Positions 2,563-17,233 of a DNA stretch of 33,072 nucleotides are shown here, piece after piece (position 1 is the first letter of the stretch; each line of letters begins with the position of its first letter). A model generated the notes under the pieces. That model was not told where the DNA came from, did not search any database, and worked only from the letters and a program-made list of their open reading frames with translations. The DNA comes from a virus: IMG/VR virus record IMGVR_UViG_3300048929_000282, positions 1 through 33,072 of that record; one strand, written 5' to 3'. Both the position numbers and the translations under genes were made by a program.

Positions 2563-3174
2563 CTAATCGAAGGCAAAGGGGAATTCCCAGGCGCAACCGT
2601 CTTTCAAACGATCAAACAGCCCTTGCTGGTCGTCCAACGAGCTATGGTCCGCCAAGTCCAGGTAGTAATTCAGCCCGTCATGCACGTAGTAAACGAGCCA
2701 TTCCCCCGTTAACGCCCCCCTCTTTTTTCTCTCCTCAATTGCTCCGTAGACAAAAGAATGTGAAATTCGATTGGCAACAGCCTCTCGATAGTTATCCATA
2801 TCTGTATCGTCTTCTCCCATTAGAATTTCTCGGAACATGGCTTGCAGTAACCCTTGCTTCTTTGCAAACCCTCCAAACCATCTGTTGTTTATGTTTTCGG
2901 GCAAGTGATATGCGTCAAAGTAATGCTTGTGCCAGAAACGCCCCAGAATAGGCCCTCTGAATTTCTCAGCGGCTTTTGTGCCTGTAGGTCGGCTGGTGGG
3001 CGTTTTCTCGAGAAAAGCAATCTCGTCCAATACCGAAAATTTATTGATCCGCCGGAGTAACGATCCGTTGTGTAGCCGCATAGCCAGGCACTGGCTGACA
3101 CGATTCCAGTAGGGTTGAGCTAGGGTTACGTTTTTTTTAAGCAGCAGCGATTCGTATCTATGCAGTAAGGGCAT
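2563..3174 (-). CDS. Unknown protein between integrase and attachment site
   Basis: I do not recognise a named family. The 203-aa product has no signal peptide or membrane segment. It has a basic N-terminal half with FRGPILGRFWHKHYF (about 73-87). The C-terminal part reads GEWLVYYVHDGLNYYLDLADH, with C194 and a final EFPFAFD, which looks like a conserved domain rather than random sequence. The ATG at 3174 is 29 bases after the integrase stop, so the two may share a transcript. Base composition is lower in G+C than the flanking phage genes. Its place between int and att is a classic cargo-gene position, so a lysogen-expressed or defence role is possible but unproven. Confidence 0.75.
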   Translation of the reverse strand: MPLLHRYESLLLKKNVTLAQPYWNRVSQCLAMRLHNGSLLRRINKFSVLDEIAFLEKTPTSRPTGTKAAEKFRGPILGRFWHKHYFDAYHLPENINNRWFGGFAKKQGLLQAMFREILMGEDDTDMDNYREAVANRISHSFVYGAIEERKKRGALTGEWLVYYVHDGLNYYLDLADHSSLDDQQGLFDRLKDGCAWEFPFAFD

Positions 3175-3203: not shown

Positions 3204-4370
3204 CTATAAACCAAGTGCGTGTTGAAGCAAACCAACGATGTCCGGGCCGTCCTCATTGATCCATGTTCCATAGTGCTGTCGGATCATGTTCGCACTGGTG
3301 TGGCCCATCTGCTCTGCAATCCAGTCAACCGAGGCGACGCCCGTGGTAAGCAGTTGGCTGGCATAGGTGTGCCGGCACTGGCCAGGTCCGCGATAACGAA
3401 CGCCGGCCGCTTTCAGGTGCGCTTTGAAGAACCTGTCCCTCACGACAAAGTCGCTGACGTGTGGCAGGCCGCTCTTGGTGTTCAGGAATACAAAGTGCAG
3501 CTTGTGCTTGCGGACGGTCTTGTTGTCCCGCTCGACGACGTCAACCGTGTCCACAGTCTTGAGTTGGTTGATGGCGTCCAGTTTCCGCAGGGCATCCCAC
3601 GCGGGCTCCAGCAGGCGTACCTTACGCGTCGAGCGCCGGGTTTTGGTCACGCGGTAGGCCCCGCGCACCTTGGATCGGCGAAAAGTCACTGTCCCCTGCT
3701 TCAGATCGACGTCCTCCCAGGCCAGCGCGATGGTCTCCGACACCCGTGGCCCCGCCCAAATCATGAACTGCACCATCAGCAGCTCCTGGGTGCGGCTGGT
3801 GTGTGTGTCGAGGATCTGCTTGATTTCCGCCCTGGTGAACGGGTCCGGTGCCTCCGGATCGGGTAGGCGCACGAATAACCCCTCGGTTGGGTCGTGCGCG
3901 ACCTTCTTCCGGGTGCGGTAAAGCCGGAACACCTGGCGCACATTGCTAATGATGTCGCGAATGGTCTTGTTCTTCAGCCGCTTCGAAAGCGGCCCCTGAA
4001 TCCACTCTTGCAGGTCCAGATGGTCGATCTGATCGATCTGAACGTCACCCCAGCGCGGCCGCACATGGACCTCAGCCTTGTTTTTGTACCCTCGGAAAGA
4101 CGTCGCAGCCACGCTGTTGCTTTTGATGGTCAGCCAAAGGTCCAGGTAATGGCCGAAGCTGTTCTCTACCAGTTTGGTCGACTCGGGAAAATGCCGGCGG
4201 TAATCGAAGGTGCCGGCCTGTATCTCGTATTCGATCACCGTCACCAGGCGCTTGGCATGCTCCCGGTTGGCCGGTGTGTTGCCGCCGGGCACCAGCTCCC
4301 GGCACAGCTCGCCATTGAAACGAAAATAGACCCGTACCGAATTGCCACGGGCCTCTACGCCATCTGCCAT
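3204..4370 (-). CDS. int: Tyrosine recombinase (phage integrase)
   Basis: This enzyme integrates and excises the prophage at tRNA-Ser. From ATG 4370 it has 388 aa: an N-terminal arm-binding region (about 1-60), a SAM-like core-binding domain (about 65-155), and a catalytic domain. The catalytic residues visible are R209 (AGPRVSET), R333-H334 (QCRHTYAS), H357 (MGHTS) and nucleophile Y367 (RQHYGTW). The first position of the H-x-x-R box is glycine, which occurs in this branch. The ATG is chosen over a GTG at 4382 because GGGGA lies 6 bases before it. The length fits phiCTX- and P2-type integrases. It is the last gene but one of the leftward region. Confidence 0.95.
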   Translation of the reverse strand: MADGVEARGNSVRVYFRFNGELCRELVPGGNTPANREHAKRLVTVIEYEIQAGTFDYRRHFPESTKLVENSFGHYLDLWLTIKSNSVAATSFRGYKNKAEVHVRPRWGDVQIDQIDHLDLQEWIQGPLSKRLKNKTIRDIISNVRQVFRLYRTRKKVAHDPTEGLFVRLPDPEAPDPFTRAEIKQILDTHTSRTQELLMVQFMIWAGPRVSETIALAWEDVDLKQGTVTFRRSKVRGAYRVTKTRRSTRKVRLLEPAWDALRKLDAINQLKTVDTVDVVERDNKTVRKHKLHFVFLNTKSGLPHVSDFVVRDRFFKAHLKAAGVRYRGPGQCRHTYASQLLTTGVASVDWIAEQMGHTSANMIRQHYGTWINEDGPDIVGLLQHALGL

Positions 4371-4413
4371 ATGCGTCCCCACGCGATGTATCGAAAGACT
4401 CTTCCAACAGGAA

Positions 4414-4996: not shown

Positions 4997-5248
4997 CTAC
5001 ATCCGAAACGACTGATGAATGAACGCCGGCTGAGCCTTATGTTCTGCGGGTTTCGGCCCGTCGCCCTGAATCTCGCAAATGAACCGATGCCGCTTTCGGT
5101 TGGGCGCAGTCAGTGACTTGGTCAGACCTGGCACGACGTCGATGCATTGCTCGTAGGCGTAAGGACCACTCCAGCTATCAGCCTTCACCACTTGGCAATC
5201 CGTTCGGGTCGCATCCGCGCACAGGTAAAGCAGAAGGAAAACAGTCAT
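4997..5248 (-). CDS. Small hypothetical protein, possible signal peptide
   Basis: The 83-aa product starts MTVFLLLYLCADATRTDCQ, a short hydrophobic stretch that could be a signal or lipoprotein-like sequence, though there is no good lipobox. Four cysteines (C10, C18, C35, C58) suggest an oxidised periplasmic fold or a metal site. The start is supported by AGGAGG 8 bases upstream and by an ATGA overlap with the methyltransferase stop (5245-5248), indicating translational coupling. The function is unknown. Confidence 0.65.
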   Translation of the reverse strand: MTVFLLLYLCADATRTDCQVVKADSWSGPYAYEQCIDVVPGLTKSLTAPNRKRHRFICEIQGDGPKPAEHKAQPAFIHQSFRM

Positions 5249-6921
5249 ACGCCAACCTCCTGTTGCGCCACGCTCAGCGCCACCGCCACGGGTTGAACCC
5301 AGATCGGCATGCTGTTGAGCATGAAGGTCTCGCCGGCTTGGGCCAGCAACAGGGTGGTACCCATCACATGGGCGATTGCTTCGGCGGCTGCCGGTGGAAC
5401 GGCGTTGCCAATCCGCTCGCGCCAGGCTTGGTCGCTCAGGCCATCCAGCTCAAACAGTTCCTCGGGCTCGACAAGGCTTTGCAGCGCAGCCAACTCCAGC
5501 GTGGTAAACGGTCTGTGCCAGGTGCCGTCGAGGCTTTCGATAACGCAGGTCAGCCGCTCGTTGGCTTCTGGCATGCGGGGGTCAGCGACGGACCACCGCC
5601 CATTGTCCTGGCGGGCACTGGCTGAAACGGCACCGCATTGGTCGCTCCAACCCACAACGCCGTAATGGCCGCCGGTTAGGTAGGCGTCGCCCTTGGTTCG
5701 TTTCATGCCTGGGCGTGGGTCTTGAACAGCGAATGCGCCCTGGCCCGTTGTGCTGCCGGAAATTACCGTGCGCGATACGCCATCCCACTGGGCCACGTTG
5801 TACTTGGCGTGCCCAATACCTGGGTCGCGGGGATCAGCAACACTAAACGTCCCTTGCCCGGGCGACTTCACGCCGATCACCGCGCCGCTCGTTTCATCCC
5901 AGCGACGGACGCCGTACTGCTGGTATTGCAGGGCACCGGTCCTGGCCCGTGGATCGGCCACCGAGAACTTGCCATTGGTTGGGCCGCTGCGCGCGGCGAC
6001 GGTACCGGCGGTTTCGCTCCAGTCGTGAACGCCGAGGAAGCCATCCCGGAACTGGGGAACAATAGCCAGGTCGCGCAGATAGCCGTCCTCGATCGCTAAA
6101 TCATTCAGGCAGCGCCAATCCTTCCCGGCCTCGACCAGGGCCAGGCGGACCCATGTTTTCCATTGCAGCGCCGGAACCCGGTGCATCGGGCCGCCGGCTT
6201 CCACGTCGCCGGCCATGGGCATACGGCCCAGGATCGAACCGACGGACTTGAGGGTTTTCTTTTCCGGCTCGTAAAGGAAGGGCGGCACCTTCTCGATGTG
6301 CCTGGCAACCAGCAAGAAGCGCTTGCGGCTCTGGGCCAGGCCGCCGATCACGCCACAGTCGTGGGTGGTTTCTGCAACTGCATAACCGTAGTGGTTCAGC
6401 AGCTTATTGATCTGGTCCAGCAGGTGCCGGCCACGGGTGGCCAGGCGGGGCACGTTCTCGAAAACGATCAACGATACCGGGTCATCCTTCCAAGCCTCGC
6501 ACATCAGCCACACGCAGCGCAGCGTCAGTTCGTTGAGCGCCTGGTACTTCGGTGTCAGGCTCATTGTTTCGGACAACAGCCCTGAGGCGCCTTTGCATGG
6601 GCTGCTGATGAATACGGCGTCCGGGCGTTCGTAGCCGGCGGCGCGGCGCACGTCGTCCGGGCCGGCCTCAATCCAACCAGCTGGTGGTGGCTTGCCGTGG
6701 AACGCGGTGTACATGTTGAGGGTGAACAGGTCCATCAGGGTGCCCGGTACGCCAGACAGGCGCTGGAAGTCGCGCAAACCTGCCGGGTCAACGTCGATGC
6801 CGCCGATGCACCGCCACTCGGCCTGAATGTTGCCCACTACGGGCTTGGCATTGTTGAACCCTTTCGCGCCGCCGCCGAGGCCACAGCAAAAATGGAAGTG
6901 GGTGAGGGTGCGCTTAAGCAT
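5245..6921 (-). CDS. C5-cytosine DNA methyltransferase with four internal repeats
   Basis: This enzyme should methylate cytosine in phage or host DNA, probably to evade restriction. Motifs in the 558-aa product: I FCCGLGGGAKGF (11-22), IV SSPC with nucleophile C109 (107-109, followed by K instead of the usual Q), VI VFENV (153-157), VIII QSRKR (197-201) and X RIGNAVPP (503-510). Between VIII and X, where target recognition usually lies, are four imperfect repeats (about 298-325, 336-365, 374-403, 420-449). Each has W-[DS]-x-x-[SAC]-G/R-x-V, then G-x-[FW]-[SA]-V-x-DPR. The gene overlaps the upstream gene by 8 bases; GAGG precedes the ATG. No cognate restriction enzyme gene is visible. Confidence 0.92.
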   Translation of the reverse strand: MLKRTLTHFHFCCGLGGGAKGFNNAKPVVGNIQAEWRCIGGIDVDPAGLRDFQRLSGVPGTLMDLFTLNMYTAFHGKPPPAGWIEAGPDDVRRAAGYERPDAVFISSPCKGASGLLSETMSLTPKYQALNELTLRCVWLMCEAWKDDPVSLIVFENVPRLATRGRHLLDQINKLLNHYGYAVAETTHDCGVIGGLAQSRKRFLLVARHIEKVPPFLYEPEKKTLKSVGSILGRMPMAGDVEAGGPMHRVPALQWKTWVRLALVEAGKDWRCLNDLAIEDGYLRDLAIVPQFRDGFLGVHDWSETAGTVAARSGPTNGKFSVADPRARTGALQYQQYGVRRWDETSGAVIGVKSPGQGTFSVADPRDPGIGHAKYNVAQWDGVSRTVISGSTTGQGAFAVQDPRPGMKRTKGDAYLTGGHYGVVGWSDQCGAVSASARQDNGRWSVADPRMPEANERLTCVIESLDGTWHRPFTTLELAALQSLVEPEELFELDGLSDQAWRERIGNAVPPAAAEAIAHVMGTTLLLAQAGETFMLNSMPIWVQPVAVALSVAQQEVGV

Positions 6922-13777: not shown

Positions 13778-13797
13778 CTCAATAAGGGGTCGTTTTG

Positions 13798-14118
13798 TTG
13801 AATATTGGTGAAAGGCTGAGGGAAGAGCGTGTCCGCTTAGGTTTCAATCAATCGGATTTCGCCGCGATCGCGGGCGTAGCAAAGACCTCTCAGTTCAACT
13901 ACGAAAAAGGCGATCGAAGCCCAGATGCGGCCTACCTCGCCGCTGTGGCGGCCGAAGGTGTGGACATCCTTTACGTGGTTATTGGTCAGCGAATGCCAGT
14001 TGCAGAACCTACCCTGTCTGCTGATGAAGTCGAGATGGTCGAACATGTGCGGTCGCTCGACGACGAAGACAAAGGCGCAGTGAAACGACTGCTGCGAGCT
14101 TTCAATCAAAAAAAATAA
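13798..14118 (+). CDS. XRE-family phage repressor (C-type, short)
   Basis: This is the lysogeny repressor by position: it is divergent from the early operon with a palindromic operator between. The 106-aa product has an N-terminal HTH (about 3-58: IGERLREERVRLGFNQSDFAAIAGVAKTSQFNYEKGDRSPDAAYL). It has a short helical C-terminus and no S24/LexA peptidase domain. Like P2 C, it should not be cleaved by activated RecA, so induction by SOS is not expected directly. The start is TTG: 13798 has AAGGGG 8 bases upstream; TTG 13795 is the alternative. A half operator covers the start, which suggests autoregulation. Confidence 0.88.
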   Translation: MNIGERLREERVRLGFNQSDFAAIAGVAKTSQFNYEKGDRSPDAAYLAAVAAEGVDILYVVIGQRMPVAEPTLSADEVEMVEHVRSLDDEDKGAVKRLLRAFNQKK

Positions 14119-14128
14119 GGAATTGAGA

Positions 14129-14476
14129 GTGAACCAGGGAATCCAGGTTTTGGCGTTGATGGCTGCGTTTACTGTTTCTGCGAGTGCAATTGCGGGGACG
14201 AAGGTGCATGCGGTCTCAAGCGAGGATTTCGGCGACGCCTGGCCGTTCACGGTCGACAGCGTCGACCTTTTATGCGACGGCCCATCACCCAAGGCTTTGG
14301 CAAGAACCGCTGACGGAACCGTCTATGCGTTAAACGGGAATGCGCGAAGGATCGCGAAAATCCGAGGATGGGCAGACGGGCAGGACATTACAAAGCCGAG
14401 CCCAACAATGCCGGCTGTAAAGATGGACTACAGCAACATTGTCGTACTCGCGCAGGACTTATGCCCGAAGCCTTGA
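14129..14476 (+). CDS. Secreted YebY/DUF2511-like protein, co-transcribed with the repressor
   Basis: The 115-aa product has a signal peptide (hydrophobic IQVLALMAAFTVSASAIAG, likely cut near residue 22). Its mature part matches the YebY/DUF2511 pattern: EDFGDAWPFTV, then LLCDG, then TVYALNGNARRIAKIRGW. Two cysteines (in LLCDG and DLCPKP) may form a disulfide in the periplasm. GTG 14129 has AAGGA 7 bases upstream, against 1 base for an upstream TTG. It starts 10 bases after the repressor stop, so it should be expressed in the lysogen. A lysogenic-conversion function is a reasonable guess; the molecular role of the family is poorly known. Confidence 0.8.
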   Translation: MNQGIQVLALMAAFTVSASAIAGTKVHAVSSEDFGDAWPFTVDSVDLLCDGPSPKALARTADGTVYALNGNARRIAKIRGWADGQDITKPSPTMPAVKMDYSNIVVLAQDLCPKP

Positions 14477-14607: not shown

Positions 14608-14769
14608 ATGTCGACGTATAACGATGTGCAGGTCAAGCAGTCCGAAAACGTAGTTGTCGAGGAGATGAATCAACGTGAGAGGTTGGTCTTGCAAATGTTC
14701 AGACAGTTAGATCAACAGCAACAAAAAGATATTTTGCGCTTTATCGAAGTTTTAACGGCTGCAAAATGA
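14608..14769 (+). CDS. 53-aa small phage protein
   Basis: The ORF runs from ATG 14608 to TGA 14767-14769, with AAGGGAG 5-6 bases upstream and a terminator directly after. The product begins MSTYNDVQVKQSENVVVEE and ends in two amphipathic helices (RERLVLQMFRQLDQQQQKD and ILRFIEVLTAAK). The end resembles the helical tails of small phage or XRE-type regulators, but there is no HTH. It is in the same direction as the repressor cassette and preceded by a stable hairpin. The function is unknown; a small regulator or interaction partner is possible. Confidence 0.75.
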   Translation: MSTYNDVQVKQSENVVVEEMNQRERLVLQMFRQLDQQQQKDILRFIEVLTAAK

Positions 14770-14775
14770 AGTGAG

Positions 14776-14797
14776 AACCCGGCATTGCCGGGTTTTT
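14776..14797 (+). terminator. Rho-independent terminator of the rightward cassette
   Basis: The 8-bp stem AACCCGGC/GCCGGGTT (14776-14783/14787-14794) has a 3-base loop and ends in five Ts. It lies 6 bases after the small ORF. It also faces the opposite-strand gene ending at 14804 and may end both transcripts. Confidence 0.9.
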
Positions 14798-14803
14798 AGT
14801 TTG

Positions 14804-15892
14804 TTATTTTTTTTGCAACATTGCTTCTATCAGTCTTATGTATTCTGGTGATGTTGAGTCATCTGTAAGGTTGTTGTTTGTTGGCTTGAATAAGGTTGAA
14901 TAAAAAAGCATCCTGACATCATCAGATTTTTCTACTTTTGTTTTTTCCATGGCGATGAATGTTCTGATCATAGTAGAACGTTCCAGTGCTTCAATTTCAA
15001 GCGCTAGATTGGTCATCATGAGTTTGACTAGAACTCGAATGAACCATATGGCTGAGGTGGTGGTTAAGATTAGAAGTGCAATTCCATATTTGTCAGTAGG
15101 TATGGGTATTTGAACTCCAGCAATTTCATGGAGTTCACTTTTGCTATATACCGTAAACACAAGCGATATTATAGTTAATATAAAGAGTATGGCCGCTCCG
15201 ATTATAATTTTCAAATATGTTTTCGCTTTTTTGTTGTGATTGAGTTCCCTTTCTTTCCAGTATTTTACCGGTTCTTCAGCTAGGATTTCGCTTGATGTCC
15301 CCTTTGTAATAGCAATTATTTCTTCTACTGATTCTTTGCACTTTTCTTCTAGTTGGTTTTTTGTGTTTTCAACAAATTCTTTGATTTTTTCGTCAGAACT
15401 TGCTGATATTTCGTTGAAGTTGTTAGTGAAAGAGTTTTCTGTGTTAGTTAGATGGTTCTTGAAGCTATCTTCAATCAACTTCAAGTCGGCGGTATACGAT
15501 TTTATGTAAGTTGTGTATTGATTTTGGAGTGTTGTTTCAAATATGTAGAGCACTATGCTGAGTTGGCCATTTTTTGCGAACTCAATTATTCTTTTTGGGT
15601 TGAAGTTTGATTCGTCATGGAAAGGGAGCGGTGTATTGCTTTGTATTAATATTATATTTCGAGTGTCGGTTAACCCCTGTAGAGCAACGTCTATAGCCTT
15701 TAGGTATTGGGAGACTAAGCCTATATTCTCGTCAGGGAATTCATCATTGTTGAGGCTTTTTTTCAAAGTGAAGTGAATTTTTGACCAAAACTCTTGCTCT
15801 TTCGTCAACCAGGGAAGCAGCTCGGTTTTATGCATCGTCTTGAAACGATCGATTCGTTCAACGTGATTCAAAGGAATATCTGCAGTCTGCAT
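14804..15892 (-). CDS. DUF6161-like membrane protein, AT-rich cargo gene
   Basis: The 362-aa product (from ATG 15892; a TTG at 15907 adds five residues) has a long, partly coiled-coil N-terminal half. There are two membrane segments (about residues 226-249, YLKIIIGAAILFILTIISLVFTVY, and 268-291) and a C-terminal cytoplasmic tail with ALEIEALERSTMIRTFIAME. A PVKYWKERELNHNKKAK motif precedes the first membrane segment. This layout and tail resemble the DUF6161 family, whose function I do not know. The gene is much richer in A+T than all neighbours and uses AT-ending codons, which suggests recent acquisition. It lies between tail gene D and the lysogeny cassette. An inner-membrane exclusion or defence role is inference. 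Confidence 0.8.
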   Translation of the reverse strand: MQTADIPLNHVERIDRFKTMHKTELLPWLTKEQEFWSKIHFTLKKSLNNDEFPDENIGLVSQYLKAIDVALQGLTDTRNIILIQSNTPLPFHDESNFNPKRIIEFAKNGQLSIVLYIFETTLQNQYTTYIKSYTADLKLIEDSFKNHLTNTENSFTNNFNEISASSDEKIKEFVENTKNQLEEKCKESVEEIIAITKGTSSEILAEEPVKYWKERELNHNKKAKTYLKIIIGAAILFILTIISLVFTVYSKSELHEIAGVQIPIPTDKYGIALLILTTTSAIWFIRVLVKLMMTNLALEIEALERSTMIRTFIAMEKTKVEKSDDVRMLFYSTLFKPTNNNLTDDSTSPEYIRLIEAMLQKK

Positions 15893-15973
15893 GTCCGTTA
15901 TGCTCAACTCTGTAGGTGTGATTCTGAAATGCTATCAAACCGTTGAGCTGAGCGGTTATGAATATTTACGGGC

Positions 15974-17233
15974 CTAGCTGTTTAATCGAGCTAATTCTCG
16001 GGTAACTGCAGCTTTTGCATTTTTTTGGCTGGCATACAGCCAGCGTAAGCGCTTAGGTTTCGTTTGATCTCCAGCCGTGACTATCTTCTCTTTGCCAGTT
16101 TTTTCGTCACGATAAAACGCGATAATCCCGGTGTGGTCCTCCTTATTCTCTTCCGCCAAGTCTTCAACATTGTCCTCCGGCAGCTTGCTTTCAAGTTCCA
16201 GACTCACCATGTAACCGCCGTCGGCGGTGAGACTGTGCTGCACGTTGCCGCCATACCAGATGATCTCGTCGATTTCCTCCTTCACGCCCTGGAGCGTGTA
16301 CGTCAACTCGGGGATCAGATCTGGCCGGCCCATTGCCAAGTTGTAGCTGAGCGTGGCGCTCCCACGTTGCAGTCGCCGGAACTCCGCCCGGGCTGCGCGC
16401 AGGGCCGACTGCTGGTCGCTGTAGGTGTGGCGCAGGTCCTTGAGGTTATCGCCGCTGCCGGCAATAGCCTCCTGTTTCTTGGCGCTATTGACGTCGTAGT
16501 AATAGGCGCGCACGCCGTCGTAGCTGTCGCGGTCCGCTTGCAGATAGCGGTGCTGGTCGCCGTCGGCACGGGTGAGGGTGATGTGTGGCAGGTCCAGGCC
16601 GCTTGCAGTCTTGCCACCGCCCGCCGGCAGGCACAGCAGGCAACCGGCTTTGACGCTGGCCACCGCATCGAATTCTTCGCCCAGGCGGCTGATCAGGTTT
16701 GCGTCGGATTCGTTGGCCTGGTCGAGCTGCAGGATGGGCAAACCGTCGAGCGCGCCGGCAATGGTGGCGCTGAGGCCGTTGCCGATGGCGATATCGCCCA
16801 GGACTTTGCCGAGGGTGGTGTTGCTCCAGCTGCGCTCGCGTTTGGTTTTCAGGCCCTTGCGCAGGTCTGCCGATCGAGCGCGGATGCTCAGCACATCCGG
16901 CGCGCCGCTGTGTTCGGTTTCGTCGACGGTATAGGTGCCTTTGTCCACCAGGCCGGTGTCGCTCCAACCCAGCCACAACCGCAACACCGCGCCCTTGGGC
17001 GGGATCGCGAGTAGGCCGTCATGGTCACTGAGAGTAATGCTGAGTTGGTCGGCCTCGACTCCGCGGTTGTCGGTCAGCTCCAGGCTCATCAGGCGCGGGC
17101 TGACCAGTTGCGCGATGTCCATGCCGTCGACGGTGAGCCTGAAGGCCGGCACGGGATAGGCCGCGTCACGGACATACTGCTCGGCGGTGCTGCGCACGTA
17201 GCCGGTGACTTTGGAAATGACCGATTCGATCAC
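15974..17233 (-). CDS. D: Tail protein D (phage late control gpD family)
   Basis: P2 gpD is the baseplate hub/tail protein needed for tail assembly, related to the gp27-like hub fold. The 419-aa product starts VIESVISKVTGYVRSTAEQYV and has PAFRLTVDGMDIAQLVSPRLMSLELTDNRGVEADQLSI, a family signature. Further on come LWLGWSDTGLVDKGTYTVDE and a ratio of strands typical of the hub. GTG 17233 overlaps the U stop as GTGA and has GAGG 6 bases upstream; an apparent N-terminal extension upstream is only out-of-frame U sequence. It is the last gene of the F-to-D late operon. Confidence 0.92.
   Translation of the reverse strand: MIESVISKVTGYVRSTAEQYVRDAAYPVPAFRLTVDGMDIAQLVSPRLMSLELTDNRGVEADQLSITLSDHDGLLAIPPKGAVLRLWLGWSDTGLVDKGTYTVDETEHSGAPDVLSIRARSADLRKGLKTKRERSWSNTTLGKVLGDIAIGNGLSATIAGALDGLPILQLDQANESDANLISRLGEEFDAVASVKAGCLLCLPAGGGKTASGLDLPHITLTRADGDQHRYLQADRDSYDGVRAYYYDVNSAKKQEAIAGSGDNLKDLRHTYSDQQSALRAARAEFRRLQRGSATLSYNLAMGRPDLIPELTYTLQGVKEEIDEIIWYGGNVQHSLTADGGYMVSLELESKLPEDNVEDLAEENKEDHTGIIAFYRDEKTGKEKIVTAGDQTKPKRLRWLYASQKNAKAAVTRELARLNS

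What the first reader, a model, noticed from the sequence alone, without database searches (positions are those of the whole stretch)
14804..15892. AT-rich DUF6161-like membrane gene inserted between tail gene D and the immunity cassette
Its base composition is far lower in G+C than all flanking genes, it is monocistronic, and it has no counterpart in P2. The protein has a long coiled-coil N-terminus, two membrane helices and a cytoplasmic tail with a conserved ERSTMIRTFIAME stretch. Cargo genes at such junctions of P2-like phages often block other phages (P2 tin, old and fun are known cases). A membrane protein with a cytoplasmic sensor-like coil fits superinfection exclusion or abortive infection. 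The function is inference only.
Basis: partly seen in the sequence, partly recalled or inferred. Interest (0 to 1): 0.65.

Follow-up and report, generated by a model that had tools for sequence, protein, structure and literature searches.

The report
Mobile membrane gene in prophage defence slot
A foreign-looking gene for an uncharacterised membrane protein (DUF6161) sits in a slot of P2-like Pseudomonas prophages where related prophages carry other exchangeable genes, about half of them matching known or candidate anti-virus defences, and cousins of the gene elsewhere lie inside restriction-modification operons, so it is probably an unrecognised anti-phage defence protein, although nothing has been tested.

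Summary
Window 14804-15892 (-) encodes a 362-aa protein at 36% G+C in a 59% G+C P2-like Pseudomonas prophage. It matches Pfam DUF6161 (54.2 bits, cut-off 27), with two membrane helices, a long helical coil and a strongly conserved cytoplasmic C-terminus. I surveyed the D-to-repressor junction in 92 relatives. It is an exchange site: 37 lack AT-rich cargo and the rest carry many unrelated cassettes. Of the 52 other cassettes, 29 belong to clusters matching defence models (KAP NTPase PDC-S20, the DS1_2 anti-phage protein with NA37, ThsB-TIR plus caspase, methylase plus PD-Lambda-5_A-like). DUF6161 genes elsewhere are rare (2-3% of genomes), occur in other prophages, and in 7 of 29 loci lie inside type I restriction operons, six directly after hsdS; 0 of 14 control regions had type I genes. 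D is 82-97% identical among the six carriers, while DUF6161 is only 43-80% identical, with an 86%-identical tail. Best reading: a single-gene membrane anti-phage effector with a variable cytoplasmic sensor and a conserved output end. The defence role is well supported by context; the mechanism (membrane-acting abortive infection rather than DNA-entry exclusion) is inference. No paper in the held library mentions DUF6161.

The parts
14804..15892 (-). DUF6161 membrane-protein gene (362 aa, 36% G+C)
15281..15562 (-). codons for the central long helix/coil, residues about 111-204
   Evidence: AlphaFold2 pLDDT about 90 over most of this stretch; weak matches only to coiled-coil proteins in PDB
15152..15208 (-). 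codons for membrane helix 1 (residues 229-247), preceded by the invariant YW (211-212) and the EPVKYW..RE..H motif
   Evidence: hydropathy, alignment
15026..15082 (-). codons for membrane helix 2 (residues 271-289)
14807..15016 (-). codons for the cytoplasmic C-terminus (residues 293-362): 51 of 70 columns invariant in six phage copies; contains invariant E304-R305 and L334-F335
15926..15939 (-). TTTGATAGCATTTC, conserved promoter-like (extended -10) block upstream of the start codon in all six phage copies
   Evidence: promoter activity inferred
14772..14798 (.). intrinsic terminator hairpin between the cassette and the immunity-side genes; similar hairpins remain at empty sites
15974..17233 (-). 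tail gene D (baseplate hub, 419 aa), left border of the exchange site
14608..14769 (+). 53-aa ORF, right border of the exchange site (cluster c5)
13795..14118 (+). HTH repressor-like gene of the immunity region (RstR/DicA-like, below curated cut-off)

Best explanation
The gene is exchangeable cargo in a defence hotspot of P2-like Pseudomonas prophages, between the D stop codon and the terminator of the immunity-side genes. It most likely makes a stand-alone, inner-membrane anti-phage effector. SHOWN: DUF6161 membership, two hydrophobic segments, a variable N-terminal and coil region with a strongly conserved C-terminus, an exchangeable location, and linkage of family members to type I restriction operons. 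INFERRED: the helical N-terminus and coil lie in the cytoplasm and oligomerise; they sense an incoming phage or a failed restriction attempt; the change is passed along the continuous helix to the two membrane helices and the conserved tail, which perturb the membrane or a conserved host partner and stop phage production (abortive infection). Probability of an anti-phage role about 0.75; of the abortive, membrane-acting mechanism given that role about 0.6. The confidence score is for the combined statement.
For: Location: 92 D-to-repressor junctions, 37 without AT-rich cargo, 3 DUF6161, 52 other cassettes of which 29 belong to clusters whose representative matches a defence model. These include the NCBIfam anti-phage protein DS1_2 above its equivalog cut-off, paired with an NA37 protein; PMC13092281 reports a YejK nucleoid-associated domain as newly validated in defence, and the link between the two is my inference. 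Independent acquisition: L156, a P2-like phage with 80% identical D, carries a divergent DUF6161 beside a methylase in the D-to-immunity interval. Family context: 7 of 29 loci inside type I restriction operons (L134, L158, L162, L181-L184), one also with Abi_2 and RhuM, against 0 of 14 control regions; other neighbours include PD-T7-3, SIR2-STAND and HEC-04-like genes. Patchy spread: 11 of 399 Pseudomonas, 11 of 398 Pseudomonadota. Exchange: D 97% but DUF6161 57% identical between L003 and L005. Modularity: N-part and coil about 35% identical, C-terminus 86%; identical-codon share is no higher in the tail, so this is protein-level constraint, not recent gene conversion.
Against: No experiment exists. 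DUF6161 is in no PADLOC, NCBIfam or PHROGs model. No fold match is significant and the model is of moderate quality (pLDDT 73, pTM 0.38). About 44% of the other cassettes match no defence model, and at least one, c44, looks like a lipoprotein. The background rate of PADLOC matches was not measured, and many hits are to candidate (PDC) or methylase models. L182-L184 look alike, so the seven restriction operons are fewer independent events; by hand, one-sided Fisher p against the small control is about 0.05. Nothing shows membrane damage or growth arrest.
Confidence: 0.5

Rival explanations
1. Superinfection exclusion: a constitutively expressed inner-membrane protein blocks DNA entry of competing phages, without cell death.
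For: Two-helix membrane protein in a prophage with its own conserved promoter-like block; the variable N-part could track different phages.
Against: Many DUF6161 genes lie in restriction operons rather than prophages. Most of the protein and its conserved tail are predicted cytoplasmic with only a short periplasmic loop in the phage copies, whereas entry blockers usually act from the periplasm (general knowledge).
Confidence: 0.2
2. Helper or safety partner of restriction: DUF6161 acts with or backs up restriction-modification (as PrrC does in hsd operons), and in prophages it works with a resident methylase or the host's system.
For: Direct position after hsdS in six loci, gene overlap in L134 and L162; methylases in the same prophage (window 5245-6921) and in the same interval as the divergent copy in L156.
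Against: Most DUF6161 loci, including the six phage cassettes and all but one of the 11 Pseudomonas genome loci, lack a complete type I operon beside them. The window methylase is elsewhere in the prophage.
Confidence: 0.15
3. Non-defence lysogenic-conversion or phage-life-cycle gene (membrane stress, lysis timing), read with the late genes from D.
For: Co-directional with D at 81 bp; other members sit near tail genes in a different phage type (L138-L140), in two of them right next to a baseplate gene.
Against: Absent from most relatives; replaced there by defence-type cassettes that often face the other way; family members in non-phage restriction loci.
Confidence: 0.15

Closest known systems
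Pfam PF19658 (DUF6161)
   Same: Window protein is a member (54.2 bits, cut-off 27, residues 146-348); shares the W, YW, ER and LF invariants with other subfamilies
   Different: Phage subfamily is short (about 360 aa), has a short periplasmic loop and a distinct near-invariant DDSTSPEYIR.IEAMLQKK tail; the family has no published function in the held library
P2/P4 defence hotspots of E. coli and the Vibrio P2-related cI-int hotspot (PMC9122126)
   Same: Small exchange site between two conserved genes of a P2-like phage holding many unrelated defence cassettes
   Different: Different position: E. coli P2 uses gpA-gpQ by cos, Vibrio uses cI-int; here it is gene D to the immunity region. I found no description of this site in the held library
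PrrC-type accessory effectors inside type I restriction operons (general knowledge)
   Same: Extra gene inside hsd operons that could act when restriction fails
   Different: PrrC is a soluble anticodon nuclease; DUF6161 is a membrane protein with no nuclease motif found
Two-helix (2TM/SLATT-type) membrane effectors of defence systems
   Same: Two membrane helices with cytoplasmic helices; weak fold match to one SLATT-named viral protein (E 0.1)
   Different: No sequence match and no signal-making enzyme encoded beside it; the fold match is not significant
DS1_2 anti-phage protein plus NA37 (NCBIfam NF053869; same junction, L017)
   Same: Shares the slot; membrane-helix-bearing partner
   Different: Two-gene system, unrelated sequence

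Membership tests
DUF6161 (PF19658) | score above the curated gathering cut-off | tested here: met
   54.2 against 27 bits
DUF6161 (PF19658) | conserved C-terminal half with YW, two membrane helices, ER and LF | tested here: met
   17-sequence alignment, profile comparisons E 1.4e-11 and 8.6e-6
Prophage defence hotspot cargo | lies between two conserved phage genes at a site with alternative cassettes and empty versions | tested here: met
Prophage defence hotspot cargo | neighbouring alternatives include validated or recognised defence systems | tested here: met
   DS1_2 anti-phage protein above equivalog cut-off; TIR plus caspase pair
Prophage defence hotspot cargo | the gene itself reduces plating of other phages | not testable with these tools
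   needs an experiment
Known PADLOC/NCBIfam/PHROGs defence or exclusion family | match to a model | tested here: not met
   only a weak coil match to LeoBC (E 0.003) in PADLOC; none in NCBIfam; PHROGs above 0.09
Type I restriction accessory gene (PrrC-like) | encoded inside a type I operon | tested here: not met
   window copy has no hsd genes beside it; 7 relatives do
SLATT/2TM effector | significant sequence or fold match | tested here: not met
   best E 0.1; no sequence hit
Virion-assembly protein | match to a structural or assembly family, or conservation in all relatives | tested here: not met

The most novel reading that the evidence does not exclude
DUF6161 is an unrecognised, widely scattered family of one-gene membrane anti-phage effectors, in which a fast-changing cytoplasmic sensor drives a nearly fixed membrane and tail module. 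It is used both alone in prophage hotspots and as a second line inside type I restriction operons, firing when restriction is beaten.
Probability: 0.3. Interest if true: 0.75.

Novelty: new variant of a known kind. Interest (0 to 1): 0.58.

Why it matters
It gives a testable function to a protein family with no mention in the held literature, and it marks the D-to-immunity junction of P2-like Pseudomonas phages as a defence hotspot distinct from those described in E. coli and Vibrio. Several other cassettes in the slot match no model, so the junction is a short list of new defence candidates. If the restriction link is functional, it would add a membrane effector to the backup systems that guard type I restriction.

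Tried and rejected
tblastn against cultured phages and plasmids: no match. Fold searches with two models: nothing significant; the axoneme and V-ATPase hits are generic long helices. Cluster c45, which shares the coil plus two-helix layout in the same slot, was tested as a distant DUF6161 and rejected (hhalign probability 1.6%). Gene conversion as the cause of the conserved tail was rejected by codon comparison. LeoBC and SMC-type hits are coil matches only. Literature searches for DUF6161 or for this junction as a hotspot found nothing on either.

Full report
WHAT IS THERE. The window is an IMG/VR virus record holding part of a P2-like prophage, from a tRNA-Ser (2281-2370) and integrase (3204-4382) to the capsid gene at the right end. 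Its relatives by gene D are all in Pseudomonas among the named genomes. At 14804-15892 (-) lies a 362-aa ORF at 36.4% G+C against 58.7% for the window. It matches Pfam DUF6161 over the cut-off and no model of PHROGs or NCBIfam. The PADLOC hit is a coil match. No paper in the held library contains 'DUF6161'.

THE PROTEIN. Hydropathy gives two membrane segments, 229-247 and 271-289, with lysine/arginine-rich flanks before the first, in all six phage copies and in the wider family. AlphaFold2 with 14 aligned sequences (pLDDT 73, pTM 0.38) gives helices at 10-107, one continuous helix 111-250 that joins coil and first membrane segment, a short hairpin, a second long helix 268-318, and two short helices. 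Nothing in PDB or the viral library matches significantly; the one suggestive row is a SLATT-named viral protein at E 0.1. Seventeen diverse members share invariant W36, Y211-W212, E304-R305 and L334-F335, and profile comparisons support one family. Among the six phage copies the N-part and coil are 34-35% identical on average, membrane helix 2 is 76% and the cytoplasmic tail 86%, 51 of 70 columns being invariant. Synonymous codons in the tail differ as much as elsewhere, so the tail is held by selection on the protein.

THE SITE. All six phage copies sit directly after D in the same direction, and share a TTTGRTAGCAT-like block just upstream of the start codon even though the sequence between it and D differs. 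I fetched 109 D loci from viral contigs and genomes and compared what follows D. Ninety-two junctions have an identifiable repressor. Of the 37 without AT-rich cargo, 16 have the D stop and the stop of the 53-aa ORF within 70 bp; in those inspected, 30-33 bp hold a terminator hairpin. Cargo lies between D and such a hairpin. Three junctions hold DUF6161 and 52 hold other cassettes. One representative of most large clusters was scanned: KAP NTPase/PDC-S20 (15 junctions), DS1_2 anti-phage protein with NA37 (5), C5-methylase with PD-Lambda-5_A-like protein (4), PDC-S49 (2), PDC-S42, ThsB-like TIR with caspase, and 2TM_IV (1 each): 29 of 52. Cargo was defined as AT-rich (below 50% G+C), so its low G+C as a class is partly by construction; that of DUF6161 is not. 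A filter on length (100 aa or more) also applies.

EXCHANGE. D is 82-97% identical among the six phages while DUF6161 is 43-80%, and the orders disagree: L003 and L005 are 97% in D but 57% in DUF6161; the window is nearest L003 and L005 in D (93%) but nearest L002 in DUF6161 (66% against 43-48%). The cassette has moved between phages. L156, another P2-like phage, holds a divergent DUF6161 with a methylase between D and the immunity region, a separate acquisition.

THE FAMILY ELSEWHERE. DUF6161 occurs in 11 of 399 Pseudomonas genomes, 11 of 398 Pseudomonadota and 8 of 395 in one further order. In 7 of 29 inspected loci it lies within a type I restriction operon, six times directly after hsdS and once between hsdR and hsdS; in L162 Abi_2 and RhuM are there too. 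None of 14 control regions from the same genomes has a type I gene. L182-L184 look related, so these are fewer than seven independent events. Other neighbours match PD-T7-3 (L135), SIR2-STAND (L137) and HEC-04-like ATPase (L133). Several further copies are in other prophages, some next to a baseplate gene (L138-L140).

INTERPRETATION. Shown: the protein's family, layout, modular conservation, exchangeable site and defence-rich company. Inferred: that it is itself a defence gene, and how it works. The layout suggests a variable cytoplasmic sensor that drives a conserved membrane and tail module. I favour abortive infection over entry exclusion because most of the protein and its constrained tail are predicted cytoplasmic, and because relatives sit in restriction operons, where backup suicide modules such as PrrC are known (general knowledge).

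Noticed in passing
window 2563-3174 (-): 203-aa protein without Pfam or NCBIfam match in an AT-richer stretch (about 47-49%) between tRNA-Ser and integrase; relatives 71-98% identical in three viral contigs. Possibly a second cargo slot.
   Followed up: partly
L027 3309-5303: Same junction carries a ThsB-like TIR protein, a caspase and a third membrane protein, resembling a TIR-caspase defence system.
   Followed up: partly
L074 6281-8484; also in L057, L064, L070, L112, L114: Three-gene AT-rich cassette (c23-c29-c30) in six junctions; the c23 and c30 proteins match no Pfam or PADLOC model and c29 no Pfam model: a new defence candidate.
   Followed up: no
L038 6872-8311, L088 6309-7673, L102 6249-7628: Cluster c45: about 455-480 aa, coil plus two membrane helices, in the same slot but not homologous to DUF6161: an independent protein of like layout.
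   Followed up: partly
L160 7852-11600: A DUF6161 gene directly followed by an FtsZ/tubulin-like GTPase gene, between transposase-like genes.
   Followed up: no
L156 3132-10131: A P2-like phage whose D-to-immunity interval holds UmuD/UmuC-like genes, a divergent DUF6161 and a C5-methylase together.
   Followed up: no
window 14123-14476 (+): DUF2511 protein with a signal-peptide-like start beside the repressor; recurrent in the immunity region of relatives (cluster c13).
   Followed up: no
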